Program-made: the position numbers and the translations under genes
The notes under the pieces: model-generated
The model's input: only the letters and a program-made list of their open reading frames with translations
Databases searched by the model: none
Told to the model about the DNA's origin: nothing
Shown here: in pieces, positions 38,043-64,000 of the stretch
Layout of the letters: the number at the start of each line of letters is the position of its first letter
Position numbering within the stretch: position 1 is the first letter of the stretch
From: Diadema setosum
Lineage: Eukaryota; Echinodermata; Echinoidea; Diadematoida; Diadematidae
Assembly (NCBI GenBank): GCA_033980235.1
Contig: CM067069.1
Coordinates: forward strand, 17,123,650 to 17,187,649
DNA: 64,000 nucleotides
Reading direction: 5' to 3'

Positions 38043-38072
38043 CAGAATCTGTGGTTGTTGGCATTTCCGTGC
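38043..38072 (-). CDS. micro-exon, Thr-rich linker (30 nt)
   Basis: The acceptor ATAATAG and donor GTGAG enclose 30 nt in phase 1-1, encoding TEMPTTTDS plus split codons. It links the kringle at 38657 to the CUB at 35615. Confidence 0.65.
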
Positions 38073-42254: not shown

Positions 42255-42611
42255 CTGTGCATCTTGCTGAAATGATTGCTTCAAATCCATCTGAGTTTAT
42301 TGACGAGTCAGAGCGAAACCTGATCCAGGCAGAGCTGAAGTCATAGTTTGCGCTAGGTGGGACCAGTTGCCCTGAGTACTCATCGGGTACGTCTGAGAAG
42401 TCCGGGTTGTCGCTGATTGTGAACTTGTCATAATTACTCTCTGTACTGAAACTGTCAAAGCGCAAAGTCATGCCACATCCCTCTGGAACAGACACCATCC
42501 AGGTAATGTCAGTATTGCTGTCGTATGGTTGGGGATAATTAGGGGATGAGATGGTCGCGCTCTCTCCAGATGCCAGGTTGAATGTTAGTCCTCCAGATGT
42601 TTCCATGGTAA
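42255..42611 (-). pseudogene. CUB-A exon with damaged splice sites
   Basis: The 119-codon CUB reading frame is fully open: FNLASGESATISSPNYP, DITWMVSVPEGC, LRFDSFSTE, DKFTISDNPDFS, AWIRFRSDSS, ISARC. At the position where paralogues have TTTAG or TCTAG before the exon, this one reads CTTTAA, so the acceptor AG is lost. The donor is GTTTGA, much weaker than GTAAGA or GTGAGA in the paralogues. The exon is therefore probably skipped, which keeps the frame because the neighbours are phase 1. A rescue acceptor inside the exon, use as an alternative first exon from its internal ATG, or a sequencing error are alternatives. Confidence 0.65.
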
Positions 42612-42975
42612 TTAAAGGTGAGAAAGGAAGAGTTAACTTCCAAAATATTCATGACGTAAAAAGAGAGTCACATATACATGTTTTCTTTTTCATTTTGATG
42701 TTCATGTCAGGGGAAGAGTGGTCATATTGCAGAAATTAAACACTACAATAATTAAAACACTACAATAATCACACACTCAATATTACTCAAGTTATTGCAT
42801 TTAAGTTTTGATATATAATGCATGATCAATATGCATTATTTTCATTTTGCTCTATCAATAAAAAACAACATTACGTCAAGTTCTTTCAAAACCGATGTCT
42901 GGCACCACCTCAAGAATGACGTTTAATCTTTTTCAGTCAGGCCTTTTATATTCTTAACGTCTCTTTGCGATAGTT
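42612..42975. other. intron up to the duplication breakpoint
   Basis: Unique AT-rich sequence ending where similarity to the tandem units begins (GAAAATATGC at 42976). Confidence 0.5.
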
Positions 42976-43333
42976 GAAAATATGCAAGCAAATACGTAAG
43001 TTTGTATAGAATACAGCAACAAACTTACACACAACCACGCATAAAAGATACATATATTCATGCATACGTTGCTTAGGCCGTTCCTCCTTACAAGAAAAAA
43101 AAATCGACAATAAACACTGTTTGCACATCTCCAAGACAAACTCGCAATCACCTGAATCAAGATAATATAATATTATTGGCTGTTGTTTTATTTCACAGTT
43201 CCAAGGAAACCACACTTAATCAGAATTAAGTAGAATAAAGGGAAAGACATGCAGTAGAAACTCGACTATCACACCACACAACAGTACATGTATACCCACT
43301 TTTTCTGAGCTATATGTTTTAGATATCACTAAC

Positions 43334-43612
43334 CAGTTGTTTCTGCACACTGCGACTGAGATGGGTAGCCTATGTCACAGTACTCCCATCGCGTCTCATC
43401 ACTCGTTGTGTAGCACCAGGCCATGTCTGACTGATCCGGGTTACGACACAGGTTGTGGTCCCCCAACCCGGCATCTGGGTATCTTTCTGGTGTTCGACTG
43501 TGCTCATGAGGAGACTGGGAGGACCACACCTGGCAAGGGAGACCACTGCGGGTGTAATTGCGGTTCCCTCTGTAATCAGTCCCGTATGGATCAGCGTAGC
43601 ATTCTCTGGGAT
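43334..43612 (-). CDS. kringle-domain exon, tandem unit 1
   Basis: A 279 nt exon, phase 1-1 (acceptor CTAACCAG, donor GTTAGT), 93 residues. All six cysteines are present: ECYADPYGTDYRG, TRSGLPCQVW, PHEHSR, GDHNLCRNPDQSD, MAWCYTT, RWEYCDIG and QCAE. It differs from units 2-4 by SGLP for SGLS, SDMA for SDTA, and SQSQC for SQPHC, and from the single-copy kringle at 38657 by about ten residues. It therefore looks intermediate between the single-copy kringle and the expanded ones. Confidence 0.88.
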
Positions 43613-43960
43613 CTGGTTAGTACAAGAAATGAAACAGTCAGCGTAAAAAAGTTCACAATATATTAGTGTCAATGGATAGCATCAGCGCTTGATTTTCCAA
43701 TGACAGCACCACAGTGAATCTTCAAAAGATGTGTTTACTTAGCCGTGGCATAACGGTTATGACTACCGGCATACTTTTGTTTTGATTGTTTATTTGTTTG
43801 TTTGGCTGCAGTCATCTGTATGTCTCTGTCTATCTGACTGCCTGTCTGTATTTAAGCTACCTGCTAAACTTGAGTTAAATATTCCAGTTAACAATATTTT
43901 TTCCAGATCAGGTTCTGCTAAGGTCTGTTTAGTCCGTTTCTCAAACTTCCTGTTATTACA

Positions 43961-44537
43961 AGGGAATTCCAGTGCAGTTGAGAGTTAGTTTGCAAAAGGA
44001 GTAAAATTCGTTTGTACAACAAGGAAAATTTGATCAAAATTTGCTGAAAAATAAGGCAGTTATGACATTTTGAAGGTTTTTTTTTTTTTTTTTTTTACTA
44101 TTTTCAGGAAACAGCTAGTTCTTGATTATTCAGAATGAATCTGCAAATAGTGAAGTGATGTCATCCCCCACAACTTGTCATATAGTTTGTACATAAGAGG
44201 TTGAAATTTCCATTTTTCCAATCACACTCAAATACACCCCAGTCTCAATTTTATTCTGAAGTTATTCAACTGTGAATTATATCCTGCTTTACGCTTTGAT
44301 AACAGAAATTGAATTTTTACTCTTTGTCCACGATCGATTGAAAATTGTGAGATGATCACATCACGGTATCTCTGACTCATTGGCATATTCATATCAGCTG
44401 GATGACAACTGTTCTGCAGAAATCATTACTTCATTAATTTTTACTCCATTTTTTTTTTAATCAAAATTTTACTTTTGTACTCATAAGATGTTATTCTTTC
44501 TTCTCAGACTAACCTACAACTTTACTGGAATTTCTCT
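43961..44537. mobile_element. TTAA-type MITE, unit 1 copy
   Basis: Ends AGGGAATTCCAGTGCAG and the inverted partner ending GGAATTTCTCT before TTAA. Sub-terminal GTTAGT/AGACTAAC arms match the element at 13132. The left flank has decayed from TTAA to TACA in all units, so insertion preceded the duplication. Confidence 0.6.
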
Positions 44538-44569
44538 TTAAACGAAATTGTAAAGTTTCGTCTACATAT

Positions 44570-45249
44570 GTGACCCTGCACCTCAAAATAAACATAAAGT
44601 CGCCAGACATGAATTTCTAGTTAAGACCATATTCTAAAAGAGCAGACTTTAAGCTTTAAAATGATGTATAACTCAAATCAAATTGACTCTCCTAACCTAT
44701 CTAAATATTGGAAAGAAAGCACAAACTCAGGAAAAGTGTGAACTGAGAAAAGAGGCTCTGAAGTACAGTGTCTATTTAAGCGCTTAATCTTTACCAAACC
44801 GTGCTGGCTGTGCGATGAATGGGACAAAAAACAGGAAGTAAACCACCAGAGTAACAACAATGAAGGGATTATCAGATTAAACCTAAATTAAGCATGCCTC
44901 ATTAACACATTCTGTCCATAATTAATGCCAACTTTAAAAGCAGTAGCACTATCCTTTCAAAAGTTATTAGAATTGAAAGTGAAGACTGTGGACAAGGTTT
45001 TTCAGAAATGAAAAGGGGATTCTAAAGACACACCTATTCTACCTAAAATGTTCGAGATAAACTGCTAAAAAAACACACTTTCCTGCCCGTTTTATGATAC
45101 CAAATTTTAGCATAATGTAAAAGAAGACCAGCTCTTTCAGAAAATATGAAAAAGTCAAGTTTGGCTGGGTTGACCCATTTCACTTATTTTCATTCCTCAC
45201 ACAAAATCAGTGTGTGCGACTTTATGTTCGTTTTGAGGTGCACGGTCAC
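44570..45249. mobile_element. GTGACC-ended TIR element, copy 4 (unit 1 only)
   Basis: 680 bp, inverted relative to copies 1-3, between ATAT at 44566-44569 and 45250-45253. Units 2-4 carry the unoccupied site CTACATATACGG (49551, 53506 and 58589 regions), so this copy inserted after unit 1 separated from the others. Confidence 0.85.
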
Positions 45250-45296
45250 ATATACGGTCTATCTGTCTGTATTAAACTATTGTTTTATATATGTGG

Positions 45297-46921
45297 TCGA
45301 GTGGGGGGGGGGGGGGGTGTGGGAGGGGGGTGTCCCCCCTCCCACGGTAAGAACTTTTTTGCATTTGGATGTTGTAAATGGTGCAATTTGATGCATGTTT
45401 TTGCGCGTTTTATCGAGTTGAAACAGTCCCACTTGTTTAAGGTAGCAGTATATTTTAGTGTAGATTATTATTGAACAATTATTTGCCTATAAAATGGTAT
45501 AATTCCAATACACTTCTTGTATTAATTCTTTTCACTGAATATCATGAACGCGACTGAACCCGAGCGAGCGGAGCGAGCGAGGGGGTAGGGGAGGGTGTGG
45601 GAGGGGGGTTTCCCCCCTCCCACGGTGACAACTTTTTACATTTTGATTTTGCAAATGGTGCAATTTGTTGCATGTATTTGAGTGTTTTAACGACGTGAAA
45701 CAGTCCCGCTTGTTTAAGATTCCAGTATATTTTAGTGTAGATTATTATTGAAGAATATTATTTGCCTATAAAATGGTATAATTCCAATACACTTCTTGTA
45801 TTAATTCTTTTCACTGAATATAATGAACGCGACTGAACCCGAGCGGGCGGAGCGAGCGAGAGGGGGAGGGTGTGGGAGGGGGGTGTCCCCCCTCCCACGG
45901 TAAGAACTTTTTGCATTTGGATGTTGTAAATGGTGCAATTTGATGCATGTTTTTGCGCGTTTTATCGAGTTGAAACAGTCCCACTTGTTTAAGGTAGCAG
46001 TATATTTTAGTGTAGATTATTATTGAACAATATTATTTGCCTATCCTAAAATGGTATAATTACAATACACTTCTTGTATTAATTCTTTTCACTGAATATC
46101 ATGAACGCGACTGAACCCGAACGAGCGGAACGAGCGAGGGGGTAGAGGAGGGTGTGGGAGGGCCCCCCCCCCCTCCCACGGTGAGGACTTTTTGCATTTT
46201 GATGTTGCAAATGGTGCAATTTTGATGCACGTTTTTGCGTGTTTTAACGAGTTGAAACAGTCCCACTTGTTTGAGGTTGCAGTATATTTTAGTGTAGATT
46301 ATTATTGAACAATTTGCCTATAAAATGGTATAATTCAAATACACTTCTTGTATTAATTCTTTTCACTGAATATCATGAACGCGACTGAACCCGAGCGAGC
46401 GGAGCGAGCGAGGGGGTAGGGGAGGGTGTGGGAGGGGGGTCTCCCCCCTCCCACGGTGAGAACTTTTTACATTTTGATTTTGCAAATGGTGCAATTTGAT
46501 GCATGTTTTTGCGTGTTTTAACGACGTGAAACAGTCCCACTTGTTTAAGATTGCAGTTTATTTTAGTGTAGATTATTATTGAACAATCGCCTATAAAATG
46601 CTATAATTCCACTACACTTCTTGTATTAATTCTTTTCACTGAATATCATGAACGCGACTGAACCCGAGCGAGCGGAGCGAACGAGGGGGGAGGCGAGGGT
46701 GTGGGAGGGGGGTGTCCACCCCCCCCCCCCCCACTTTAAGAACTTTTTTGCATTTTGATTTTGCAAATGGTGTAATTTGATGCATGTTTTTGCGCGTTTT
46801 ATCGACGTGAAACAGTTCCACTTGTTTAAGGTAGCAGTATATTTTAGTGTAGATTATTATTGAACAATTTGCCTATAAAATGATATAATTTAGATACACT
46901 TCTTGTATTAATTCTTTTCAC
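45297..46921. repeat. ~275 bp satellite array, unit 1
   Basis: About six monomers. The landmark TGAACGCGACTGAACCCGAG recurs at 45545, 45823, 46102, 46376 and 46649, so the period is 273-279. Each monomer has a GC-rich inverted repeat (12-base arms GTGGGAGGGGGG and CCCCCCTCCCAC around TCT at 46428-46454), then an AT-rich half ending CTTCTTGTATTAATTCTTTT. Confidence 0.9.
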
Positions 46922-47969
46922 TGTTGTAAGGAGTTGATTTAAATCTAATTTAAATACCCTCCAGTCTGGGAGGAAGTGAATTTGCATATGAATTTAGTCG
47001 GGTTGGAGGCATCCCACATGCAGGTGTTTGACAGCTATTGTTTCCCGGCATAGTTAAGTTGCAGCAGCCAGCGTAGTATAGGCAGGCTCACAAGAAGTGA
47101 AGCTGCCACACCCTGTCTTGCCACCAGACAGACCAGACGCTGCAGAGCCTTGTCTAGCAGTGATGCCACAACTGGGGTGTCCAAGGCCCAAACGAGACTG
47201 TAGAGGACGTAAAGTTCGGACCAGACGTGGAGGCTAAGCAGCAAGGCCAGATAAAGAGGTTGATGGGTGCGTATAGGGATGTCATGACTGACCTCCCGGG
47301 TAAGACACACCTAGGCAGCCACTCAATCCGGCTGACATCAGATGACCCGGTCAGACAGAAACCATATCCTGTCCCTCATGCCCTCCGCGGCGTGATTGAA
47401 GAGGAAGTTGAGAAGATGGTCGAGTTGGGAGTCATAGAAAAGTCTAACTCCCCATACTCTTCCCCAATTGTGATCGTGAAGAAATCTGACGGCAGTAATC
47501 GCTTCTGCATCGATTTTCGACGGCTGAATCGCGTCACTGTCTTTGACGCCGAACCTCTTCCCAACGCAGAGGAAATATTCGCCGGACTGTCAGGATCACA
47601 CTACTTCTCCAAAGTGGATTTGAGTAAGGGATACTGGCAGATCCCTCTCTCAGATGACGCAAAGGAGAAGACAGCATTTCAGACTACAGGTGGGCTGTAC
47701 CATTTCCGCGTAATGCCTTTTGGGCTAGTCAACGCACCGGCCACGTTCAGCCGAGTGATGCGGAAATTGCTGGCAGGCATGAAGCACGTGACAAACTACT
47801 TGGATGACATCCTCATACACACACGGACATGGGAGGAGCACCTCGATACACTACGCGAGTTGCTTCGACGACTGAGAGCAGCAGGACTGACTGCTCGCCC
47901 CAGCAAGTGTCAACTTGGGTGCAAACAAGTAGAGTTCTTGGGGCACCTCGTGCAACACGGAAAAGTCCA
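46922..47969 (+). mobile_element. truncated Ty3 (gypsy) retrotransposon, unit 1
   Basis: Begins TGTTGTAAGGAG directly after satellite sequence, plausibly an LTR start. It runs without gag or protease into reverse-transcriptase coding sequence and stops at the duplication breakpoint. An internal deletion joining LTR to pol is implied. Confidence 0.75.
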
Positions 47970-48003
47970 GAAAATATGCAAGCAAATACGTAAGTTTGTA
48001 TAG
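47227..48003 (+). pseudogene. Ty3 reverse transcriptase fragment, unit 1
   Basis: An uninterrupted frame that opens upstream of the GTG at 47227 (readable back to a TGA near 47160). Motifs in order: LGVIEKSNSPYSSPIV, CIDFRRLN, KVDLSKGYWQIPL, FGLVNAPATFSR, catalytic YLDDIL near 47800, then EFLGHLV. After GKVQ the frame runs into kringle-intron sequence and stops at 48001-48003. Thumb, RNase H and integrase are missing. The RT palm is intact by eye, but there is no promoter, gag or RNase H, so no activity is expected. Confidence 0.85.
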
Positions 48004-48325
48004 AATACAGTAACAAACTTACACACAACCACGCATAAAAGATACATATATTCATGCATACGTTGCTTAGGCCGTTCCTCCTTACAAGAAAAAAAAAATC
48101 GACAATAAACACTGTTTGCACATCTCCAAGACAAACTCGCAATCACCTGAATCAAGATAATATATTATTGGCTGTTGTTTTATTTCACAGTTCCAAGGAA
48201 ACCACACTTAATCAGAATTAAGTAGAATAAAGGGAAAGACATGCAGTAGAAACTCGACTATCACACCACACAACAGTACATGTATACCCACTTTTTCTGA
48301 GCTATATGTTTTAGATATCACTAAC

Positions 48326-48604
48326 CAGTTGTTTCTGCACAGTGCGGCTGAGATGGGTAGCCTATGTCACAGTACTCCCATCGCGTCTCATCACTCGTTG
48401 TGTAGCACCAGGCCGTGTCTGACTGATCCGGGTTACGACACAGGTTGTGGTCCCCCAACCCGGCATCTGGGTATCTTTCTGGTGTTCGACTGTGCTCATG
48501 AGGAGATTGGGAGGACCACACCTGGCAAGAGAGACCACTGCGGGTGTAATTGCGGTTCCCTCTGTAATCAGTCCCGTATGGATCAGCGTAGCATTCTCTG
48601 GGAT
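48326..48604 (-). CDS. kringle-domain exon, tandem unit 2
   Basis: 279 nt, phase 1-1, with the same splice sites as unit 1. All six cysteines are intact. Carries the expanded-type residues SGLSCQVW, SDTAWCY and PHCAETTG. It differs from units 3 and 4 only at a silent site (CAA for CAG in the Ser-Gln-Ser segment), which indicates very recent duplication or ongoing homogenisation. Confidence 0.88.
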
Positions 48605-48954
48605 CTGGTTAGTACAAGAAATGAAACAGTTAGCGTAAACAAATTCACAATATATTAGTGTCAATGGATAGCGTATCAGCGCTTGATTTTCCAATGACAG
48701 CACCACAGTGAATCTTCAAAAGATGTGTTTACTTAGCCGTGGCATAACGGTTATGACTACCGGCATACTTTTGTTTTGATTGTTTATTTGTTTGTTTGGC
48801 TGCAGTCATCTGTATGTCTCTGTCTATCTGACTGCCTGTCTGTATTTAAGCTACCTGCTAAACTTGAGTTAAATATTCCAGTTAACAATATTTTTTCCAG
48901 ATCAGGTTCTGCTAAGGTCTGTTTAGTCCGTTTCTCAAACTTCCTGTTATTACA

Positions 48955-49526
48955 AGGGAATTCCAGTGCAGTTGAGAGTTAGTTTGCAAAAGGAGTAAAA
49001 TTCGTTTGTACAACAAGGAAAATTTGATCAAAATTGGCTGAAAAATAAGGCAGTTATGACATTTTGAAGTTTTTTTTTTTTGTTTTACTATTTTCAGGAA
49101 ACAGCTAGTTCTTGAATATTCAGAATGAATCTGCAAATAGTGAAGTGATGTCATCCCCCACAACTTGTCATATAGTTTGTACATAAGAGGTTGAAATTTC
49201 CATTTTTCCAATCACACTCAAATACACCCCAGTCTCAATTTTATTCTGAAGTTATTCAACTGTGAATTACATCCTGCTTTACGCATTGATAACAGAAATT
49301 GAATTTTTACTCTTTGTCCACGATCGATTAAAAAAAGGGAGATGATCACATCACGGTATCTCTGACTCATTGGCATATTCATATCAGCTGGATGACAACT
49401 GTTCTGCAGAAATCATTACTTCATTAATTTTTACTCCATTTTTTTTTAATCAAAATTTTACTTTTGTACTCATAAGATGTTATTCTTTCTTATCAGACTA
49501 ACCTAAAACTTTACTGGAATTTCTCT
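48955..49526. mobile_element. TTAA-type MITE, unit 2 copy
   Basis: Near-identical to the unit 1 copy, with a shorter internal poly-T (about 49070-49081). Confidence 0.6.
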
Positions 49527-50035
49527 TTAAACGAAATTGTAAAGTTTCGTCTACATATACGGTCTATCTGTCTGTTTCTTATTAAACTATTGTTTTATAT
49601 ATAGGCTTACTGACAATTATATTGAATATGGTGATCCCCATAAATAATACCAAAGATTTCATTATTGGGCTACCTACTATTTTGACAGCATCTCAGCAAA
49701 CATATTATCCTGATATCGTCTATTTTATGTACCTATGTTGTCTTTTGTCTCTTTAGTAATGAAGTTACCGCCGTAGTCCCTACCCTACATTAATTCTATA
49801 CCACCCCTTCCCCCTAAAAAGACATACAGTCAACTCCCGTTATAACGAAATGCTCGGGACCGGCAGTTTTCTTTCGTTATAACGAAATTTCGTTATAACC
49901 GAACAAATACAATATATAACGAAAACAAGGAACCACGTATATATCATAGTATGTTTGCTGAATACTCATCATACACTGGAAAGCAACGGCGTAGCCAGGA
50001 TTTCAACTTAGGGGGGGGGGGGGGCGGTTAGTCTG

Positions 50036-50867
50036 CGAGGGAGCGAAGCGACCGAGCCCGAGCGAGCGGAGCGAGCGAGAGGGGGAGGGTGTGGGAGGGG
50101 GGTGTCCCCCCTCCCACGGTAAGAACTTTTTTGCATTTGGATGTTGTAAATGGTGCAATTTGATGCATGTTTTTGCGCGTTTTATCGAGTTGAAACAGTC
50201 CCACTTGTTTAAGGTAGCAGTATATTTTAGTGTAGATTATTATTGAACAATATTATTTGCCTATAAAATGGTATAATTACAATACACTTCTTGTATTAAT
50301 TCTTTTCACTGAATATCATGAACGCGACTGAACCCGAGCGAGCGGAACGAGCGAGGGGGTAGGGGAGGGTGTGGGAGGGCCCCCCCCCCCCTCCCACGGT
50401 GAGAAATTTTTGCATTTTGATGTTGCAAATGGTGCAATTTTGATGCACGTTTTTGCGTGTTTTAACGAGTTGAAACAGTCCCACTTGTTTGAGGTTGCAG
50501 TATATTTTAGTGTAGATTATTATTGAACAATTTGCCTATAAAATGGTATAATTCAAATACACTTCTTGTATTAATTCTTTTCACTGAATATCATGAACGC
50601 GACTGAACCCGAGCGAGCGGAGCGAGCGAGGGGGTAGGGGAGGGTGTGGGAGGTTGGTCTCCCCCCCCCCCCCCCCCCCACGGTGAGAACTTTTTACATT
50701 TTGATTTTGCAAATGGTGTAATTTGATGCATGTTTTTGCGCGTTTTATCGACGTGAAACAGTCCCACTTGTTTAAGGTAACAGTATATTTTAGTGTAGAT
50801 TATTATTGAACAATTTGCCTATAAAATGATATAATTTAGATACACTTCTTGTATTAATTCTTTTCAC
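50036..50867. repeat. ~275 bp satellite array, unit 2
   Basis: About three monomers, with the landmark at 50319 and 50594. Introduced by GCGAGGGAGCGAAGCGACCG. One hairpin has decayed to a long C run near 50661-50679. Confidence 0.85.
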
Positions 50868-51918
50868 TGTTGTAAGGAGTTGATTTAAATCTAATTTAAA
50901 TACCCTCCAGTCTGGGAGGAAGTGAATTTGCATATGAATTTAGTCGGGTTGGAGGCATCCCACATGCAGGTGTTTGACAGCTATTGTTTCCCGGCATAGT
51001 TAAGTTGCAGCAGCCAGCGTAGTATAGGCAGGCTCACAAGAAGTGAAGCTGCCACACCCTGTCTTGCCACCAGACAGACCAGACGCTGCAGAGCCTTGTC
51101 TAGCAGTGATGCCACAACTGGGGTGTCCAAGGCCCAAACGAGACTGTAGAGGACGTAAAGTTCGGACCAGACGTGGAGGCTAAGCAGCAAGGCCAGATAA
51201 AGAGGTTGATGGGTGCGTATAGGGATGTCATGACTGACCTCCCGGGTAAGACACACCTAGGCAGCCACTCAATCCGGCTGACATCAGATGACCCGGTCAG
51301 ACAGAAACCATATCCTGTCCCTCATGCCCTCCGCGGCGTGATTGAAGAGGAAGTTGAGAAGATGGTCGAGTTGGGAGTCATAGAAAAGTCTAACTCCCCA
51401 TACTCTTCCCCAATTGTGATCGTGAAGAAATCTGATGGCAGAATCGCTTCTGCATCGATTTTCGACGGCTGAATCGCGTCACTGTCTTTGACGCCGAACC
51501 TCTTCCCAACGCAGAGGAAATATTCGCCGGACTGTCAGGATCACACTACTTCTCCAAAGTGGATTTGAGTAAGGGATACTGGCAGATCCCTCTCTCAGAT
51601 GACGCAAAGGAGAAGACAGCATTTCAGACTACAGGTGGGCTGTACCATTTCCGCGTAATGCCTTTTGGGCTAGTCAACGCACCGGCCACGTTCAGCCGAG
51701 TGATGCGGAAATTGCTGGCAGGCATGAAGCACGTGACAAACTACTTGGATGACATCCTCATACACACACGGACATGGGAGGAGCACCTCGATACACTACG
51801 CGAGTTGCTTCGACGACTGAGAGCAGCAGGACTGACTGCTCGCCCCAGCAAGTGTCAATTAACTTGGGTGCAAACAAGTAGAGTTCTTGGGGCACCTCGT
51901 GCAACACGGAAAAGTCCA
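50868..51918 (+). mobile_element. truncated Ty3 fragment, unit 2 (frameshifted)
   Basis: As in unit 1, but the RT frame has a 1-base loss after SDG (near 51439) and a TTAA insertion near 51858. The open frames are therefore 51173-51472 and 51559-51942. YLDDIL is still present. Confidence 0.8.
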
Positions 51919-52277
51919 GAAAATATGCAAGCAAATACGTAAGTTTGTATAGAATACAGCAACAAACTTACACACAACCACGCATAAAAGATACATATAT
52001 TCATGCATACGTTGCTTAGGCCGTTCCTCCTTACAAGAAAAAAAAAATCGACAATAAACACTGTTTGCACATCTCCAAGACAAACTCGCAATCACCTGAA
52101 TCAAGATAATATAATATTATTGGCTGTTGTTTTATTTCACAGTTCCAAGGAAACCACACTTAATCAGAATTAAGTAGAATAAAGGGAAAGACATGCAGTA
52201 GAAACTCGACTATCACACCACACAACAGTACATGTATACCCACTTTTTCTGAGCTATATGTTTTAGATATCACTAAC

Positions 52278-52556
52278 CAGTTGTTTCTGCACAGTGCGGC
52301 TGAGATGGGTAGCCTATGTCACAGTACTCCCATCGCGTCTCATCACTCGTTGTGTAGCACCAGGCCGTGTCTGACTGATCCGGGTTACGACACAGGTTGT
52401 GGTCCCCCAACCCGGCATCTGGGTATCTTTCTGGTGTTCGACTGTGCTCATGAGGAGACTGGGAGGACCACACCTGGCAAGAGAGACCACTGCGGGTGTA
52501 ATTGCGGTTCCCTCTGTAATCAGTCCCGTATGGATCAGCGTAGCATTCTCTGGGAT
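52278..52556 (-). CDS. kringle-domain exon, tandem unit 3
   Basis: 279 nt, phase 1-1, same splice sites. The protein is identical to units 2 and 4 as far as I can read (SGLSCQVW, SDTAWCY, PHCAETTG) and all six cysteines are intact. A transcript could splice it directly to the unit 2 kringle in frame, with no linker micro-exon between. Confidence 0.88.
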
Positions 52557-52906
52557 CTGGTTAGTACAAGAAATGAAACAGTTAGCGTAAACAAATTCAC
52601 AATATATTAGTGTCAATGGATAGCGTATCAGCGCTTGATTTTCCAATGACAGCACCACAGTGAATCTTCAAAAGATGTGTTTACTTAGCCGTGGCATAAC
52701 GGTTATGACTACCGGCATACTTTTGTTTTGATTGTTTATTTGTTTGTTTGGCTGCAGTCATCTGTATGTCTCTGTCTATCTGACTGCCTGTCTGTATTTA
52801 AGCTACCTGCTAAACTTGAGTTAAATATTCCAGTTAACAATATTTTTTCCAGATCAGGTTCTGCTAAGGTCTGTTTAGTCCGTTTCTCAAACTTCCTGTT
52901 ATTACA

Positions 52907-53480
52907 AGGGAATTCCAGTGCAGTTGAGAGTTAGTTTGCAAAAGGAGTAAAATTCGTTTGTACAACAAGGAAAATTTGATCAAAATTGGCTGAAAAATAA
53001 GGCAGTTATGACATTTTGAAGGTTTTTTTTTTTTTGTTTTACTATTTTCAGGAAACAGCTAGTTCTTGAATATTCAGAATGAATCTGCAAATAGTGAAGT
53101 GATGTCATCCCCCACAACTTGTCATATAGTTTGTACATAAGAGGTTGAAATTTCCATTTTTCCAATCACACTCAAATACACCCCAGTCTCAATTTTATTC
53201 TGAAGTTATTCATCTGTGAATTACATCCTGCTTTACGCTTTGATAACAGAAATTGAATTTTTACTCTTTGTCCACGATCGATTAAAAAATGGGAGATGAT
53301 CACATCACGGTATCTCTGACTCATTGGCATATTCATATCAGCTGGATGACAACTGTTCTGCAGAAATCATTACTTCATTAATTTTTACTCCATTTTTTTT
53401 TAATCAAAATTTTACTTTTGTACTCATAAGATGTTATTCTTTCTTATCAGACTAACCTAAAACTTTACTGGAATTTCTCT
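52907..53480. mobile_element. TTAA-type MITE, unit 3 copy
   Basis: Near-identical to the copies in units 2 and 4. Confidence 0.6.
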
Positions 53481-53992
53481 TTAAACGAAATTGTAAAGTT
53501 TCGTCTACATATACGGTCTATCTGTCTGTTTCTTATTAAACTATTGTTTTATATATAGGCTTACTGACAATTATATTGAATATGGTGATCCCCATAAATA
53601 ATACCAAAGATTTCATTATTGGGCTACCTCCTATTTTGACAGCATCTCAGCAAACATATTATCCTGATATCGTCTATTTTATGTACCTATGTTGTCTTTT
53701 GTCTCTTTAGTAATGAAGTTACCGCCGTAGTCCCTACCCTACATTAATTCTATACCACCCCTTCCCCCTAAAAAGACATACAGTCAACTCCCGTTATAAC
53801 GAAATGCTCGGGACCGGCAGTTTTCTTTCGTTATAACGAAATTTCGTTATAACCGAACAAATACAATATATAACGAAAACAAGGAACCACGTATATATCA
53901 TAGTATGTTTGCTGAATACTCATCATACACTGGAAAGCAACGGCGTAGCCAGGATTTCATCTTAAGGGGGGGGGGGGCGGTTAGTCTGCGAG

Positions 53993-55947
53993 GGAACGAA
54001 GCGACCGAGCCCGAGCGAGCGGAGCGAGCGGAGCGAGCGAGAGGGGGAGGGTGTGGGAGGGGGGTGTCCCCCCTCCCACGGTAAGAACTTTTTTTGCATT
54101 TGGATGTTGTAAATGGTGCAATTTGATGCATGTTTTTGCGCGTTTTATCGACGTGAAACAGTCCCACTTGTTTAAGGTAGCAGTATATTTTAGTGTAGAT
54201 TATTATTGAACAATTATTTGCCTATAAAATGGTATAATTCCAATACACTTCTTGTATTAATTTTTTTTCACTGAATATCATGAACGCGACTGAACCCGAG
54301 CGAGCTGAGCGAGCGGAGCGAGCGAGGGGGTAGGGGAGGGTGTGGGAGGGGGGTTTCCCCCCTCCCACGGTGACAACTTTTTACATTTTGATTTTGCAAA
54401 TGGTGCAATTTGTTGCATGTATTTGCGTGTTTTAACGACGTGAAACAGTCCCACTTGTTTAAGATTGCAGTTTATTTTAGTGTAGATTATTATTGAACAA
54501 TATTATTTGCCTATAAAATGGTACAATTCCAATACACTTCTTGTATTAATTCTTTTCACTGAATATCATGAACGCGACTGAACCCGAGCGAGCGGAGCGA
54601 GCGAGGGGGTAGGGGAGGGTGTGGGAGGCCCCCCCCCCTCCCATGGTGAGAACTTTTTGCATTTTGATGTTGCAAATGGTGCAATTTTGATGCACGTTTT
54701 TGCGTGTTTTAACGAGTTGAAACAGTCCCACTTGTTTGAGGTTGCAGTATATTTTAGTGTAGATTATTATTGAACAATTTGCCTATAAAATGGTATAATT
54801 CAAATACACTTCTTGTATTAATTCTTTTCACTGAATATCATGAACGCGACTGAACCCGAGCCAGCGGAGCGAGCGAGGGGGTAGGGGAGGGTGTGGGAGG
54901 GGGGTCTCCCCCCTCCCACGGTGAGAACTTTTTACATTTTGATTTTGCAAATGGTGCAATTTGATGCATGTTTTTGCGTGTTTTAACGATGTGAAACAGT
55001 CCCACTTGTTTAAGATTGCAGTATATTTTAGTGTAGATTATTATTGAACAATATTATTTGCCTATAAAATGGTATAATTCCAATACACTTCTTGTATTAA
55101 TTCTTTTCACTGAATATCATGAACGCGACTGAACCCGAGCGAGCGGAGCGAGCGAGAGGGTAGGGGAGAGTGTGGGAGGGCCCCCCCCCCCTCCCACGGT
55201 GAGAACTTTTTGCATTTTGATGTAAACTCTTGCAAATGGTGCAATTTTGATGCACGTTTTTGCGTGTTTTAACGAGTTGAAACAGTCCCACTTGTTTGAG
55301 GTTGCAGTATATTTTAGTGTAGATTATTATTGAACAATTTGCCTATAAAATGGTATAATTCCACTACACTTCTTGTATTAATTCTTTTCACTGAATATCA
55401 TGAACGCGACTGAACCCGAGCGAGCGGAGCGAGCGAGGGGGTAGGGGAGGGTGTGGGAGGGGGGTCTCCCCCCTCCCACGGTGAGAACTTTTTTCATTTT
55501 GATTTTGCAAAAGGTGCAATTTGATGCATGTTTTTGCGTGTTTTAACGACGTGAAACAGTCCCACTTGTTTAAGATTGCAGTTTATTTTAGTGTAGATTA
55601 TTATTGAACAATCGCCTATAAAATGCTATAATTCCACTACACTTCTTGTATTAATTCTTTTCACTGAATATCATGAACGCGACTCAACCCGAGCGAGCGG
55701 AGCGAACGAGGGGGGAGGCGAGGGTGTGGGAGGGGGGTGTCCACCCCCCCCCCCCCCCACGGTAAGAACTTTTTTGCATTTTGATTTTGCAAATGGTGTA
55801 ATTTGATGCATGTTTTTGCGCGTTTTATCGACGTGAAACAGTTCCACTTGTTTAAGGTAGCAGTATATTTTAGTGTAGATTATTATTGAACAATTTGCCT
55901 ATAAAATGATATAATTTAGATACACTTCTTGTATTAATTCTTTTCAC
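53993..55947. repeat. ~275 bp satellite array, unit 3
   Basis: About seven monomers: the landmark occurs at 54281, 54569, 54841, 55120, 55401 and 55674 (steps 272-288). Alternating monomer subtypes (GTTTCCC, CCCC and GTCTCCC loop forms) suggest a higher-order arrangement. Confidence 0.85.
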
Positions 55948-56999
55948 TGTTGTAAGGAGTTGATTTAAATCTAATTTAAATACCCTCCAGTCTGGGAGGA
56001 AGTGAATTTGCATATGAATTTAGTCGGGTTGGAGGCATCCCACATGCAGGTGTTTGACAGCTATTGTTTCCCGGCATAGTTAAGTTGCAGCAGCCAGCGT
56101 AGTATAGGCAGGCTCACAAGAAGTGAAGCTGCCACACCCTGTCTTGCCACTAGACAGACCAGACGCTGCAGAGCCTTGTCTAGCAGTGATGCCACAACTG
56201 GGGTGTCCAAGGCCCAAACGAGACTGTAGAGGACGTAAAGTTCGGACCAGACGTGGAGGCTAAGCAGCAAGGCCAGATAAAGAGGTTGATGGGTGCGTAT
56301 AGGGATGTCATGACTGACCTCCCGGGTAAGACACACCTAGGCAGCCACTCAATCCGGCTGACATCAGATGACCCGGTCAGACAGAAACCATATCCTGTCC
56401 CTCATGCCCTCCGCGGCGTGATTGAAGAGGAAGTTGAGAAGATGGTCGAGTTGGGAGTCATAGAAAAGTCTAACTCCCCATACTCTTCCCCAATTGTGAT
56501 CGTGAAGAAATCTGACGGCAGTAATCGCTTCTGCATCGATTTTCGACGGCTGAATCGCGTCACTGTCTTTGACGCCGAACCTCTTCCCAACGCAGAGGAA
56601 ATATTCGCCGGACTGTCAGGATCACACTACTTCTCCAAAGTGGATTTGAGTAAGGGATACTGGCAGATCCCTCTCTCAGATGACGCAAAGGAGAAGACAG
56701 CATTTCAGACTACAGGTGGGCTGTACCATTTCCGCGTAATGCCTTTTGGGCTAGTCAACGCACCGGCCACGTTCAGCCGAGTGATGCGGAAATTGCTGGC
56801 AGGCATGAAGCACGTGACAAACTACTTGGATGACATCCTCATACACACACGGACATGGGAGGAGCACCTCGATACACTACGCGAGTTGCTTCGACGACTG
56901 AGAGCAGCAGGACTGACTGCTCGCCCCAGCAAGTGTCAATTAACTTGGATGCAAACAAGTAGAGTTCTTGGGGCACCTCGTGCAACACGGAAAAGTCCA
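55948..56999 (+). mobile_element. truncated Ty3 fragment, unit 3
   Basis: The RT frame (56253-57023) is open through YLDDIL. It then shifts at the TTAA insertion near 56938, so the EFLGHLV end is lost and a different tail is read. Confidence 0.8.
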
Positions 57000-57359
57000 G
57001 AAAATATGCAAGCAAATACGTAAGTTTGTATAGAATACAGTAACAAACTTACACACAACCACGCATAAAAGATACATATATTCATGCATACGTTGCTTAG
57101 GCCGTTCCTCCTTACAAGAAAAAAAAAAATCGACAATAAACACTGTTTGCACATCTCCAAGACAAACTCGCAATCACCTGAATCAAGATAATATAATATT
57201 ATTGGCTGTTGTTTTATTTCACAGTTCCAAGGAAACCACACTTAATCAGAATTAAGTAGAATAAAGGGAAAGACATGCAGTAGAAACTCGACTATCACAC
57301 CACACAACAGTACATGTATACCCACTTTTTCTGAGCTATATGTTTTAGATATCACTAAC

Positions 57360-57638
57360 CAGTTGTTTCTGCACAGTGCGGCTGAGATGGGTAGCCTATG
57401 TCACAGTACTCCCATCGCGTCTCATCACTCGTTGTGTAGCACCAGGCCGTGTCTGACTGATCCGGGTTACGACACAGGTTGTGGTCCCCCAACCCGGCAT
57501 CTGGGTATCTTTCTGGTGTTCGACTGTGCTCATGAGGAGACTGGGAGGACCACACCTGGCAAGAGAGACCACTGCGGGTGTAATTGCGGTTCCCTCTGTA
57601 ATCAGTCCCGTATGGATCAGCGTAGCATTCTCTGGGAT
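57360..57638 (-). CDS. kringle-domain exon, tandem unit 4
   Basis: 279 nt, phase 1-1, same splice sites, six cysteines, protein as in units 2 and 3. It is the most 5' kringle visible. The next unit starts at 63715, so another kringle exon is expected at about 64073-64351, outside this window. The gene's signal peptide must lie further upstream still. Confidence 0.88.
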
Positions 57639-57988
57639 CTGGTTAGTACAAGAAATGAAACAGTCAGCGTAAACAAATTCACAATATATTAGTGTCAATG
57701 GATACCGTATCAGCGCTTGATTTTCCAATGACAGCACCACAGTGAATCTTCAAAAGATGTGTTTACTTAGCCGTGGCATAACGGTTATGACTACCGGCAT
57801 ACTTTTGTTTTGATTGTTTATTTGTTTGTTTGGCTGCAGTAATCTGTATGTCTCTGTCTATCTGACTGCCTGTCTGTATTTAAGCTACCTGCTAAACTTG
57901 AGTTAAATATTCCAGTTAACAATATTTTTTCCAGATCAGGTTCTGCTAAGGTCTGTTTAGTCCGTTTCTCAAACTTCCTGTTATTACA

Positions 57989-58562
57989 AGGGAATTCCAG
58001 TGCAGTTGAGAGTTAGTTTGCAAAAGGAGTAAAATTCGTTTGTACAACAAGGAAAATTTGATCAAAATTGGCTGAAAAATAAGGCAGTTATGACATTTTG
58101 AAGGTTTTTTTTTTTTTGTTTTACTATTTTCAGGAAACAGCTAGTTCTTGAATATTCAGAATGAATCTGCAAATAGTGAAGTGATGTCATCCCCCACAAC
58201 TTGTCATATAGTTTGTACATAAGAGGTTGAAATTTCCATTTTTCCAATCACACTCAAATACACCCCAGTCTCAATTTTATTCTGAAGTTATTCAACTGTG
58301 AATTACATCCTGCTTTACGCTTTGATAACAGAAATTGAATTTTTACTCTTTGTCCACGATCGATTAAAAAATGGGAGATGATCACATCACGGTATCTCTG
58401 ACTCATTGGCATATTCATATCAGCTGGATGACAACTGTTCTGCAGAAATCATTACTTCATTAATTTTTACTCCATTTTTTTTTAATCAAAATTTTACTTT
58501 TGTACTCATAAGATGTTATTCTTTCTTATCAGACTAACCTAAAACTTTACTGGAATTTCTCT
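57989..58562. mobile_element. TTAA-type MITE, unit 4 copy
   Basis: Near-identical to the copies in units 2 and 3. Confidence 0.6.
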
Positions 58563-59062
58563 TTAAACGAAATTGTAAAGTTTCGTCTACATATACGGTC
58601 TATCTGTCTGTTTCTTATTAAACTATTGTTTTATATATAGGCTTACTGACAATTATATTGAATATGGTGATCCCCATAAATAATACCAAAGATTTCATTA
58701 TTGGGCTACCTACTATTTTGACAGCATCTCAGCAAACATATTATCCTGATATCGTCTATTTTATGTACCTATGTTGTCTTTTGTCTCTTTAGTAATGAAG
58801 TTACCGCCGTAGTCCCTACCCTACATTAATTCTATACCACCCCTTCCCCCTAAAAAGACATACAGTCAACTCCCGTTATAACGAAATGCTCGGGACCGGC
58901 AGTTTTCTTTCGTTATAACGAAATTTCGTTATAACCGAACAAATACAATATATAACGAAAACAAGGAACCACGTATATATCATAGTATGTTTGCTGAATA
59001 CTCATCATACACTGGAAAGCAACGGCGTAGCCAGGATTTCATCTTAAGGGGGGGGGCGGTTA

Positions 59063-60829
59063 GTCTGCGAGGGAGCGAAGCGACCGAGCCCGAGCGAGCG
59101 GAGCGAGCGAGAGGGGGAGGGTGTGGGCCCCCCTCCCACGGTAAGAACTTTTTTGCATTTGGATGTTGTAAATGGTGCAATTTGATGCATGTTTTTGCGC
59201 GTTTTATCGAGTTGAAACAGTCCCACTTGTTTAAGGTAGCAGTATATTTTAGTGTAGATTATTATTGAACAATTATTTGCCTATAAAATGGTATAATTCC
59301 AATACACTTCTTGTATTAATTTTTTTCACTGAATATCATGAACGCGACTGAACCCGAGCGAGCTGAGCGAGCGGAGCGAGCGAGGGGGTAGGGGAGGGTG
59401 TGGGAGGGGGGTTTCCCCCCTCCCACGGTGACAACTTTTTACATTTTGATTTTGCAAATGGTGCAATTTGTTGCATGTATTTGCGTGTTTTAACGACGTG
59501 AAACAGTCCCGCTTGTTTAAGATTGCAGTTTATTTTAGTGTAGATTATTATTGAACAATATTATTTGCCTATAAAATGGTACAATTCCAATACACTTCTT
59601 GTATTAATTCTTTTCACTGAATATCATGAACGCGACTGAACCCGAGCGAGCGGAGCGAGCGAGGGGGTAGGGGAGGGTGTGGGAGGGCCCCCCCCCCCTC
59701 CCATGGTGAGAACTTTTTGCATTTTGATGTTGCAAATGGTGCAATTTTGATGCACGTTTTTGCGTGTTTTAACGAGTTGAAACAGTCCCACTTGTTTGAG
59801 GTTGCAGTATATTTTAGTGTAGATTATTATTGAACAATTTGCCTATAAAATGGTATAATTCAAATACACTTCTTGTATTAATTCTTTTCACTGAATATCA
59901 TGAACGCGACTGAACCCGAGCGAGCGGAGCGAGCGAGGGGGTAGGGGAGGGTGTGGGAGGGGGGTCTCCCCCCTCCCACGGTGAGAACTTTTTACATTTT
60001 GATTTTGCAAATGGTGCAATTTGATGCATGTTTTTGCGTGTTTTAACGATGTGAAACAGTCCCACTTGTTTAAGATTGCAGTATATTTTAGTGCAGATTA
60101 TTATTGAACAATATTATTTGCCTATAAAATGGTATAATTCCAATACACTTCTTGTATTAATTCTTTTAACTGAATATCATGAACGCGACTGAACCCGAGC
60201 GAGCGGAGCGAGCGAGAGGGTAGGTTAGAGTGTGGGAGGGCCCCCCCCCCCCTCCCACGGTGAGAACTTTTTGCATTTTGATGTAAACTCTTGAAAATGG
60301 TGCAATTTTGATGCACGTTTTTGCGTGTTTTAACGAGTTGAAACAGTCCCACTTGTTTGAGGTTGCAGTATATTTTAGTGTAGATTATTATTGAACAATT
60401 TGCCTATAAAATGGTATAATTCCACTACACTTCTTGTATTAATTCTTTTCACTGAATATCATGAACGCGACTCAACCCGAGCGAGCGGAGCGAGCGAGGG
60501 GGTAGGGGAGGGTGTGGGAGGCCCCCCCCCCCCTCCCATGGTGAGAACTTTTTGCATTTTGATGTTGCAAATGTTGCAAGCGAGCGGAGCGAACGAGGGG
60601 GGAGGCGAGGGTGTGGGAGGGGGGTATCCACCCCCCCCCCACGGTAAGAACTTTTTTGCATTTTGATTTTGCAAATGGTGTAATTTGATGCATGTTTTTG
60701 CGCGTTTTATCGACGTGAAACAGTCCCACTTGTTTAAGGTAACAGTATATTTTAGTGTAGATTATTATTGAACAATTTGCCTATAAAATGATATAATTTA
60801 GATACACTTCTTGTATTAATTCTTTTCAC
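59063..60829. repeat. ~275 bp satellite array, unit 4 first block
   Basis: About six full monomers plus one internally deleted at 60570-60590, where GATGTTGCAAATGTTGCAAG runs straight into the CGAGCGGAGCG part of the next. Confidence 0.85.
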
Positions 60830-61386
60830 TGTTGTAAGGAGTTGATTTAAATCTAATTTAAATACCCTCCAGTCTGGGAGGAAGTGAATTTGCATATGAA
60901 TTTAGTCGGGTTGAAGGCATCCCACATGCAGGTGTTTGACAGCTATTGTTTCCCGGCATAGTTAAGTTGCAGCAGCCAGCGTAGTATAGGCATTCTCACA
61001 AGAAGTGAAGCTGCCACACCCTGTCTTGCCACCAGACAGACCAGACGCTGCAGAGCCTTGTCTAGCAGTGATGCCACAACTGGGGTGTCCAAGGCCCAAA
61101 CGAGACTGTAGAGGACGTAAAGTTCGGACCAGACGTGGAGGCTAAGCAGCAAGGCCAGATAAAGAGGTTGATGGGTGCGTATAGGGATGTCATGACTGAC
61201 CTCCCGGGTAAGACACACCTAGGCAGCCACTCAATCCGGCTGACATCAGATGACCCGGTCAGACAGAAACCATATCCTGTCCCTCATGCCCTCCGCGGCG
61301 TGATTGAAGAGGAAGTTGAGAAGATGGTCGAGTTGGGAGTCATAGAAAAGTCTAACTCCCCATACTCTTCCCCAATTGTGATCGTG
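60830..61386 (+). mobile_element. truncated Ty3 fragment, unit 4 first copy
   Basis: Same start as the others, but RT coding stops after SPIVIV at 61386. The open frame 61135-61494 continues into a short inverted insert and satellite, so it is a chimaeric frame with no meaning as protein. Confidence 0.8.
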
Positions 61387-61404
61387 CAAATTCACTTCCT
61401 CCCA

Positions 61405-62666
61405 ATTTTGATGCACGTTTTTGCGTGTTTTAACGAGTTGAAACAGTCCCACTTGTTTGAGGTTGCAGTATATTTTAGTGTAGATTATTATTGAACAATT
61501 TGCCTATAAAATGGTATAATTCAAATACACTTCTTGTATTAATTCTTTTCACTGAATATCATGAACGCGACTGAACCCGAGCGAGCGGAGCGAGCGAGGG
61601 GGTAGGGGAGGGTGTGGGAGGGGGGTCTCCCCCCTCCCACGGTGAGAACTTTTTACATTTTGATTTTGCAAATGGTGCAATTTGATGCATGTTTTTGCGT
61701 GTTTTAACGATGTGAAACAGTCCCACTTGTTTAAGATTGCAGTATATTTTAGTGTAGATTATTATTGAACAATATTATTTGCCTATAAAATGGTATAATT
61801 CCAATACACTTCTTGTATTAATTCTTTTCACTGAATATCATGAACGCGACTGAACCCGAGCGAGCGGAGCGAGCGAGAGGGTAGGGGAGAGTGTGGGAGG
61901 GCCCCCCCCCCCTCCCACGGTGAGAACTTTTTGCATTTTGATGTAAACTCTTGCAAATGGTGCAATTTTGATGCACGTCTTTGCGTGTTTTAACGAGTTG
62001 AAACAGTCCCACTTGTTTGAGGTTGCAGTATATTTTAGTGTAGATTATTATTGAACAATTTGCCTATAAAATGGTATAATTCCACTACACTTCTTGTATT
62101 AATTCTTTTCACTGAATATCATGAACGCGACTGAACCCGAGCGAGCGGAGCGAGCGAGGGGGTAGGGGAGGGTGTGGGAGGGGGGTCTCCCCCCTCCCAC
62201 GGTGAGAACTTTTTTCATTTTGATTTTGCAAAAGGTGCAATTTGATGCATGTTTTTGCGTGTTTTAACGACGTGAAACAGTCCCACTTGTTTAAGATTGC
62301 AGTTTATTTTAGTGTAGATTATTATTGAACAATCGCCTATAAAATGCTATAATTCCACTACACTTCTTGTATTAATTCTTTTCACTGAATATCATGAACG
62401 CGACTCAACCCGAGCGAGCGGAGCGAACGAGGGGGGAGGCGAGGGTGTGGGAGGGGGGTGTCCACCCCCCCCCCCCCCCGGTAAGAACTTTTTTGCATTT
62501 TGATTTTGCAAATGGTGTAATTTGATGCATGTTTTTGCGCGTTTTATCGACGTGAAACAGTCCCACTTGTTTAAGGTAGCAGTATATTTTAGTGTAGATT
62601 ATTATTGAACAATTTGCCTATAAAATGATATAATTTAGATACACTTCTTGTATTAATTCTTTTCAC
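61405..62666. repeat. ~275 bp satellite array, unit 4 second block
   Basis: About four and a half monomers starting mid-monomer (ATTTTGATGCACG), very similar to 59738-60829 and to 55200-55947. Confidence 0.85.
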
Positions 62667-63714
62667 TGTTGTAAGGAGTTGATTTAAATCTAATTTAAAT
62701 ACCCTCCAGTCTGGGAGGAAGTGAATTTGCATATGAATTTAGTCGGGTTGGAGGCATCCCACATGCAGGTGTTTGACAGCTATTGTTTCCCGGCATAGTT
62801 AAGTTGCAGCAGCCAGCGTAGTATAGGCAGGCTCACAAGAAGTGAAGCTGCCACACCCTGTCTTGCCACTAGACAGACCAGACGCTGCAGAGCCTTGTCT
62901 AGCAGTGATGCCACAACTGGGGTGTCCAAGGCCCAAACGAGACTGTAGAGGACGTAAAGTTCGGACCAGACGTGGAGGCTAAGCAGCAAGGCCAGATAAA
63001 GAGGTTGATGGGTGCGTATAGGGATGTCATGACTGACCTCCCGGGTAAGACACACCTAGGCAGCCACTCAATCCGGCTGACATCAGATGACCCGGTCAGA
63101 CAGAAACCATATCCTGTCCCTCATGCCCTCCGCGGCGTGATTGAAGAGGAAGTTGAGAAGATGGTCGAGTTGGGAGTCATAGAAAAGTCTAACTCCCCAT
63201 ACTCTTCCCCAATTGTGATCGTGAAGAAATCTGACGGCAGTAATCGCTTCTGCATCGATTTTCGACGGCTGAATCGCGTCACTGTCTTTGACGCCGAACC
63301 TCTTCCCAACGCAGAGGAAATATTCGCCGGACTGTCAGGATCACACTACTTCTCCAAAGTGGATTTGAGTAAGGGATACTGGCAGATCCCTCTCTCAGAT
63401 GACGCAAAGGAGAAGACAGCATTTCAGACTACAGGTGGGCTGTACCATTTCCGCGTAATGCCTTTTGGGCTAGTCAACGCACCGGCCACGTTCAGCCGAG
63501 TGATGCGGAAATTGCTGGCAGGCATGAAGCACGTGACAAACTACTTGGATGACATCCTCATACACACACGGACATGGGAGGAGCACCTCGATACACTACG
63601 CGAGTTGCTTCGACGACTGACAGCAGCAGGACTGACTGCTCGCCCCAGCAAGTGTCAACTTGGGTGCAAACAAGTAGAGTTCTTGGGGCACCTCGTGCAA
63701 CACGGAAAAGTCCA
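62667..63714 (+). mobile_element. truncated Ty3 fragment, unit 4 second copy
   Basis: The RT frame 62972-63748 is intact to EFLGHLV and the same breakpoint as in unit 1. It lacks the TTAA insertion of units 2 and 3. One residue differs from unit 1 (RLTAAG for RLRAAG). Confidence 0.85.
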
Positions 63715-64000
63715 GAAAATATGCAAGCAAATACGTAAGTTTGTATAGAATACAGTAACAAACTTACACACAACCACGCATAAAAGATACATATATTCAT
63801 GCATACGTTGCTTAGGCCGTTCCTCCTTACAAGAAAAAAAAAATCGACAATAAACACTGTTTGCACATCTCCAAGACAAACTCGCAATCACCTGAATCAA
63901 GATAATATAATATTATTGGCTGTTGTTTTATTTCACAGTTCCAAGGAAACCACACTTAATCAGAATTAAGTAGAATAAAGGGAAAGACATGCAGTAGAAA
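63715..64000. repeat. tandem segmental duplication, unit 5 (start only)
   Basis: 286 bases of intron text matching the beginning of units 1-4, cut by the window edge before its kringle exon. Confidence 0.85.

What the first reader, a model, noticed from the sequence alone, without database searches (positions are those of the whole stretch)
42976..64000. Kringle copy-number array: one kringle exon per tandem 4-6.7 kb unit, apolipoprotein(a)-like, in an invertebrate
Seen: four complete head-to-tail units and the start of a fifth, each with one open 279 nt kringle exon in phase 1-1 with identical splice sites. Units 2-4 encode the same protein. Known: human LPA kringle IV-2 varies in number through a ~5.5 kb one-kringle repeat. 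Inferred: this locus adds or removes whole kringles in frame by unequal exchange, so protein length may vary between individuals. Here the kringle is in one exon and the repeat carries a retroelement and satellite, so it would be an independent origin of the same architecture.
Basis: partly seen in the sequence, partly recalled or inferred. Interest (0 to 1): 0.88.

Follow-up and report, generated by a model that had tools for sequence, protein, structure and literature searches.

The report
Tandem kringle-exon array in sea urchin
A probable sea-urchin gene carries at least four near-identical head-to-tail DNA blocks that each hold one kringle protein module, much like the repeat that varies in number in human lipoprotein(a), but it arose separately and similar repeated kringles are already listed in acorn-worm proteins.

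Summary
On the minus strand at 42976-63714 lie four complete tandem units (4994, 3949, 5081 and 6715 bp) and the start of a fifth. Each has one open 279-nt kringle exon, phase 1-1, with the same splice sites. Units 2-4 encode an identical 93-residue kringle; unit 1 differs at 4 residues. Length differences come mainly from the number of ~275-bp satellite monomers. Unit 4 is best read as two fused units that lost a kringle exon, joined by a 20-nt inverted templated insert. Neighbouring CUB and Ly6-like exons match the sea urchin Diadema, so the host is probably an echinoid. In a poorly resolved kringle tree the array groups with unnamed and acorn-worm kringles, away from plasminogen K4, so the likeness to apo(a) is convergent. 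It is not the first such case: a predicted Ptychodera flava protein holds five fully identical kringles and is already labelled apolipoprotein(a)-like. Copy-number variation between individuals, transcription and splicing were not testable. A stop and a poly(A) signal just after each array exon leave open that these exons end transcripts. Partly supported: a new variant of a known kind.

The parts
42976..47969 (-). Unit 1, the divergent edge unit of the array
   Evidence: Self-comparison; 15 private differences on the kringle side; its middle stretch 44570-45297 gave no match to unit 2's middle (the script stopped there, other middle pairs not run)
47970..51918 (-). Unit 2, shortest, 3 satellite monomers
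51919..56999 (-). Unit 3, 7 satellite monomers
57000..63714 (-). Unit 4, read as two fused units (57000-61386 and 61403-63714) with one kringle exon
63715..64000 (-). Start of unit 5, cut by the window end; its kringle is not seen
43334..43612 (-). Kringle exon K1, 279 nt, phase 1-1
48326..48604 (-). Kringle exon K2, 279 nt
52278..52556 (-). Kringle exon K3, 279 nt
57360..57638 (-). Kringle exon K4, 279 nt
45303..46923 (+). Satellite of unit 1, ~275-bp period, 6 anchored monomers
50048..50869 (+). Satellite of unit 2, 3 anchored monomers
54001..55949 (+). Satellite of unit 3, 7 anchored monomers
59128..60579 (+). Satellite of unit 4, first part (its last anchored monomer starts at 60721, past this TRF row), 6 anchored monomers
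61407..62668 (+). Satellite of unit 4, second part, 5 anchored monomers
47164..47969 (+). Reverse transcriptase fragment of a retroelement, antisense to the kringles; repeated in each unit (ORFs from 51110, 56190, 61072 cut short, 62909)
   Evidence: RVT_1 E 3.4e-33; ORFs; protein relatives
61385..61404 (+). Fusion junction inside unit 4; 20 nt that are an inverted copy of a stretch at the satellite/retroelement border (core at 60877-60892 and in the other units)
42226..42648 (-). CUB exon next to the array, acceptor AG changed to AA and weak donor: probably skipped or dead
41179..41457 (-). Kringle exon Kb, a different kringle type, phase 1-1 (a phase-2 acceptor scores equally)
38657..38935 (-). 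Kringle exon Ka, older relative of the array kringle, 91% identical to K1 in protein

Best explanation
This is part of a multi-kringle gene on the minus strand of a probable sea urchin. A kringle exon that can be added or removed in frame (phase 1-1, 93 codons) was caught, with its introns, in a tandem duplication whose right breakpoint lies inside a retroelement fragment. The 4-5 kb unit was then amplified and kept alike by unequal exchange or gene conversion between units, with the ~275-bp satellite as extra homology. Non-homologous deletion also acted: unit 4 has probably lost one kringle. If all exons are spliced, the visible array gives a protein run of four near-identical kringles followed directly by kringle Kb, and its length would change by 93 residues per unit gained or lost. 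Shown: units, exons, frames, unit relations, junction scar. Inferred: splicing into one mRNA, order of events, variation between individuals.
For: Units and exons. Exchange: U1 is 98.7-98.9% like the others on the kringle side but 99.7-99.8% on the retroelement side; incompatible shared sites on both sides (42 against 666; 5 against 313); mosaic satellite monomers. Loss: the second part of unit 4 is 99.5% identical to unit 3 over 2.3 kb, while its first and second parts differ at 5 sites in about 666 bp where the second part and unit 3 differ at 1, and the joint carries a 20-nt inverted copy. Splicing to Kb: relative P0001 joins an array-type kringle directly to a Kb-type kringle, and the CUB exon between them here has lost its acceptor. 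Coding constraint in the older pair Ka-K1: dN 0.052, dS 0.17, Fisher P 0.018. In my relaxed signal-peptide scan 0 of 166 ATG frames in the four units qualified.
Against: No transcript, no reads, no second individual. Inside the array there is no sign of purifying selection: K1 against K3 and K4 has 4 amino-acid changes and 0 silent ones, K2 adds one silent change, and exon and non-exon divergence of units 1 and 3 are alike (4 of 279 against 13 of 1312, P 0.52). Ka against K3 is not significant (P 0.115). Each array exon is followed by a stop and by AATAAA 141 nt on. The array donor is only moderate (score 2.4). One monomer of unit 4's second part is closer to unit 4's first part (100%) than to unit 3 (99.6%). 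P0001 comes from an unnamed 896-base contig that may or may not be a transcript. The conflicting sites are few and could in part be recurrent mutation.
Confidence: 0.68

Rival explanations
1. The array kringle exons are terminal exons, or each unit is its own small one-kringle gene: the transcript runs past the donor, stops at the next codons and is cut at the AATAAA 141 nt downstream. Copy number would then change gene or isoform number, not protein length.
For: In 4 of 4 units an in-frame TAG lies 3-5 nt past the exon end and AATAAA lies 141 nt after the exon; behind it in unit 3, the one printed, is a G/T-rich stretch. A Lytechinus pictus protein of 115 residues with one kringle is listed as plasminogen-like.
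Against: AATAAA occurs 66 times in 64 kb of this strand, so one within 141 nt is unremarkable. Phase 1-1 and exact 279-nt length suit an internal exon. P0001 shows the array type joined onward to Kb. No signal-peptide-like first exon was found in the units, 0 of 166 frames, but the scan gave only 3 hits of 564 frames in all, so this is a weak test.
Confidence: 0.17
2. A recently amplified stretch of repeats that carries a kringle exon along without function: the array is neutral or decaying.
For: No purifying selection seen within the array; the neighbouring CUB exon has lost its acceptor; satellite and retroelement make up much of each unit.
Against: All 4 exons are open with six cysteines and the same splice sites; Ka-K1 shows constraint. 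The array looks too young for decay to be expected, so openness is weak evidence either way.
Confidence: 0.1
3. Assembly artefact: extra copies from haplotypes or from mis-joined repeats.
For: Units 2-4 are 99.6-99.7% alike on the kringle side, and no reads were available.
Against: Units have different satellite counts (6, 3, 7, 6+5 monomers), private differences and a junction with a 20-nt inverted insert, which a mis-join would not be expected to make. Two haplotypes alone do not give four units.
Confidence: 0.05

Closest known systems
Human LPA kringle IV-2 repeat (apolipoprotein(a))
   Same: Tandem coding repeat with one kringle per unit of about 5.5 kb, near-identical units, retroelements and a short tandem repeat in the introns (PMC7613587 and PMC11462820, passages seen)
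   Different: Here one exon per kringle instead of two (160 and 182 bp), and a different kringle clade. Population variation is known for LPA and untested here. No protease domain was noticed in the window.
Predicted apolipoprotein(a)-like proteins of the acorn worms Ptychodera flava and Saccoglossus kowalevskii (P0156-P0160, P0162)
   Same: Runs of 6-10 kringles by my profile; P0157 has five full-length kringles that are 100% identical, as a young array would give; best-scoring named relatives in the capped list
   Different: 42-61% identity of the full kringles printed (P0156-P0158, P0160, P0162) to the window kringles; gene structure not seen here; their name looks like an automatic label
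Unnamed relatives P0001 and P0003/P0011
   Same: Array-type and Kb-type kringles together: joined in P0001; as two proteins for which contigs of the same length, 7106, are listed, probably one contig, in P0003/P0011
   Different: No array seen; contigs were not readable and the source organism is unknown
Flatworm Tmed-krg1, six kringles, needed for temporary adhesion
   Same: Multi-kringle extracellular protein in an invertebrate (PMC9229212, passages seen)
   Different: No array of identical units mentioned in the passages seen; not compared by sequence

Membership tests
Kringle domain (PF00051) | Profile match above cut-off with six cysteines | tested here: met
   85.2 bits against 34.3 for unit 1's ORF; of the six cysteine columns five are invariant and one nearly so in 17 aligned proteins
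Apolipoprotein(a) / plasminogen kringle IV lineage | Kringles that group with plasminogen K4 | tested here: not met
   Rabbit plasminogen k4 and three kringles of macaque P0226 form their own clade (SH-aLRT 98); the window kringles lie outside (91 columns, many forks unresolved)
Apolipoprotein(a) / plasminogen kringle IV lineage | Each kringle in two exons of about 160 and 182 bp | tested here: not met
   One 279-nt exon in 4 of 4 units
Apolipoprotein(a) / plasminogen kringle IV lineage | Protease-like domain at the C-terminal end | tested here: inconclusive
   None noticed in the minus-strand ORFs looked at by eye (one search was cut); only 10 ORFs were given to Pfam, and the gene's ends are not known
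Kringle copy-number repeat (LPA KIV-2 kind) | Head-to-tail units with one kringle each and nearly identical sequence | tested here: met
Kringle copy-number repeat (LPA KIV-2 kind) | Copy number differs between individuals | not testable with these tools
   No reads or second assembly; the search of the window's own genome did not complete (14 tries)
Kringle copy-number repeat (LPA KIV-2 kind) | Repeated kringles spliced into one protein | not testable with these tools
   Frames allow it; indirect support only
Lysine-binding kringle | Both acidic residues of the plasminogen K4 site (55 and 57, numbering and role recalled) | tested here: not met
   In the alignment NPDAD of K4 is NPDQS here: the second acid is Ser. 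Binding itself was not tested

The most novel reading that the evidence does not exclude
A live, length-polymorphic multi-kringle protein in an echinoderm: individuals carry different numbers of the 4-5 kb unit, so the secreted protein differs by whole kringles, an independent repeat of the apo(a) design outside vertebrates and one with visible scars of both gain and loss.
Probability: 0.45. Interest if true: 0.68.

Novelty: new variant of a known kind. Interest (0 to 1): 0.48.

Why it matters
LPA kringle number is a famous coding copy-number repeat in humans, and convergence with hedgehog was already known (title seen in a reference list). An array in an invertebrate deuterostome, together with the identical kringles of Ptychodera, would suggest that kringle exons flanked by phase-1 introns are prone to this again and again. 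It would offer a system without the medical context in which to test how such repeats grow, shrink and stay alike.

Tried and rejected
Mutually exclusive splicing (as in Dscam) was considered and set aside: units 2-4 encode the same protein, so a choice among them would change nothing.

A local duplication inside unit 4, instead of a fusion of two units, was considered. It is less likely because the two retroelement parts differ at 5 sites in about 666 bp while the second part is 99.5% like unit 3. One satellite monomer points the other way.

The first signal-peptide scan was too strict: it found nothing anywhere. The relaxed scan found 0 of 166 ATG frames in the units, 3 of 67 at 35974-42975 (two of them nested) and 0 of 331 at 1-34000. 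It has no positive control and is weak.

Rfam on the window, at gathering thresholds, gave nothing. The six further CUB exons, the FN3 exon and the Ly6-like exons along the strand may belong wholly or partly to a second gene that starts near 36.4 kb; this was not settled.

In the tree I used 90 kringles. P0034 and P0035 gave no domain long enough, for most multi-kringle proteins I kept only chosen kringles, and identical sequences were dropped. The label macaque LPA is mine: the source calls P0226 a hypothetical protein.

Corrected on checking: unit 4 ends at 63714, not 63719 as set; the CUB identities to Diadema range wider than I first wrote.
Full report
What is there. Self-comparison of the window shows four complete tandem units from 42976 to 63714 and the start of a fifth. 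Each of the 4 units has one open 279-nt exon on the minus strand, with the same acceptor and donor and phase 1-1. Unit 1's kringle ORF matches Pfam Kringle at 85.2 bits, and the unit 2-4 sequence matches plasminogen, HGF, prothrombin and apo(a) kringles of the PDB. Units 2, 3 and 4 encode the same 93 residues. Unit 1 differs at 4 residues, and at all four it has the residue of the older kringle Ka.

Unit anatomy. Read on the plus strand, a unit is kringle side (about 1.6 kb), a middle stretch, a satellite of about 275-bp monomers, and a retroelement fragment with a reverse transcriptase domain, antisense to the kringle. Satellite anchors number 6, 3, 7 and 11 (6+5) in units 1 to 4, 27 in all; with the fusion in unit 4 this is the main cause of the length differences. 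At the borders seen (starts of units 2, 3, 4 and 5) the retroelement joins the same kringle-side start, while the left edge of unit 1 has a different flank. So the first duplication probably broke inside the retroelement.

Exchange between units. Unit 1 is the odd one on the kringle side (15 of 23 variable ungapped sites are private to it), but not on the retroelement side. Among the other variable sites, one pair on each side conflicts with any single tree of units, and satellite monomers are mosaic. Recurrent mutation could explain a few such sites; together they favour exchange or conversion.

A probable lost kringle. Unit 4 holds two satellite-plus-retroelement parts. The second (61403 on) is 99.5% identical to unit 3 over 2.3 kb, but the two parts of unit 4 differ at 5 sites in about 666 bp. 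The joint carries 20 nt that copy, inverted, a stretch at the satellite/retroelement border. Short inverted templated inserts are reported at repaired breaks in yeast (PMC11724301, start of abstract seen in the listing). If the second part came from a unit like unit 3, about 3.26 kb with one kringle exon is missing. One satellite monomer fits a local duplication better.

Selection. Ka against K1 gives dN 0.052 and dS 0.17 (Fisher P 0.018), but Ka against K3 is not significant (P 0.115). The introns of Ka and the array do not align beyond some 60 nt, while a 324-bp stretch around the exon is 90% alike. Inside the array I see no constraint: K1 against K3 and K4 has 4 amino-acid changes and no silent one (chance 0.38 if neutral), and exon divergence does not differ from non-exon divergence (P 0.52).

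Neighbours and gene limits. Downstream on the minus strand follow a CUB exon with acceptor AG changed to AA, kringle Kb, kringle Ka, CUB exons, Ly6-like exons, an FN3 exon and more CUB exons. Of 15 ORFs scored, 12 have a best acceptor of positive score in phase 1; Kb ties between phases 1 and 2, and the Ly6-like ORF and the damaged CUB have no positive acceptor; the best donor is phase 1 in 15 of 15. The relative P0001 joins an array-type kringle directly to a Kb-type kringle (score 621 for K1+Kb, 614 for Ka+Kb, 538 for K1+Ka, 486 for Kb+Ka), which fits skipping of the damaged CUB exon. The CUB and Ly6-like exons match Diadema proteins P0166 and P0208, in which my kringle profile found none. 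So they may form a second gene; a weak signal-like exon lies at 36434-36383.

Host. The four alike CUB exons are 49-76% identical to the CUB domains of the two Diadema antillarum proteins (70-76% at best per exon), the other three 23-38%; the two Ly6-like exons are 63% and 81%. Diadema is an echinoid. The kringle is 63% identical to a Lytechinus pictus protein. An echinoid host is likely but not proven.

Comparison with what is known. LPA KIV-2: about 5.55 kb per unit, two exons per kringle, L1 elements in the introns, about 40 alleles (PMC7613587 passages; PMC11462820 passages). The unit size and one-kringle design agree; the exon layout and kringle clade do not. Hence: works like it, perhaps; not a member. 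In the tree the array kringles group with P0001 and P0003 (SH-aLRT 85) and then with two Saccoglossus kringles (85); Kb groups with P0001, P0011, P0012 and P0015 (86). The acorn worm Ptychodera flava has predicted proteins named apolipoprotein(a)-like, one with five identical kringles. [quoted passage not shown]

In print. My searches for kringle with sea urchin and plasminogen (5 papers), hemichordate (8), echinoderm (16), Ptychodera (0) and tandem exon duplication (0), and the wider ones (capped lists), showed no title or abstract start that describes such an array. I saw passages of four papers only, and subscription papers are not held.

What speaks against one long protein. In 4 of 4 units an in-frame stop lies just past the donor and AATAAA follows 141 nt after the exon. 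The motif occurs about once per kb on this strand, so it may mean nothing, but it is not excluded that these exons end transcripts.

Verdict. Its reading as an apo(a)-like length-variable protein is plausible, not shown, and not without precedent among invertebrates.

Noticed in passing
window 42226-42648 (-): CUB exon whose acceptor AG is AA, with a codon missing near a weak donor; three sister CUB exons at 36, 34.7 and 17.2 kb keep the AG.
   Followed up: yes
window 5356-19243 and 34283-36065 (-): CUB exons, two Ly6-like exons and one FN3 exon; order CUB-Ly6-CUB resembles the Diadema protein P0208.
   Followed up: partly
window 25577-29355 (+): Broken retroelement frames, by eye of a BEL/Pao kind; one fragment gave no Pfam match.
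   Followed up: no
window 916-2030 (+): Reverse-transcriptase-like frames of a non-LTR element, judged by eye.
   Followed up: no
window 31385-32868: A stretch of about 740-750 bp seems present twice in tandem (several identical frames in the ORF list), with a third, partial copy near 24659-25229; not aligned.
   Followed up: no
window 22714-23012: Tandem repeat with 126-bp period, 2.5 copies.
   Followed up: no
window 40180-40236: G+C-rich 14-bp tandem repeat, about 4 copies, between Kb and Ka.
   Followed up: no
P0156-P0158: Ptychodera flava predicted proteins with similar, near-identical or fully identical kringle runs; worth a gene-structure check as possible copy-number arrays.
   Followed up: partly
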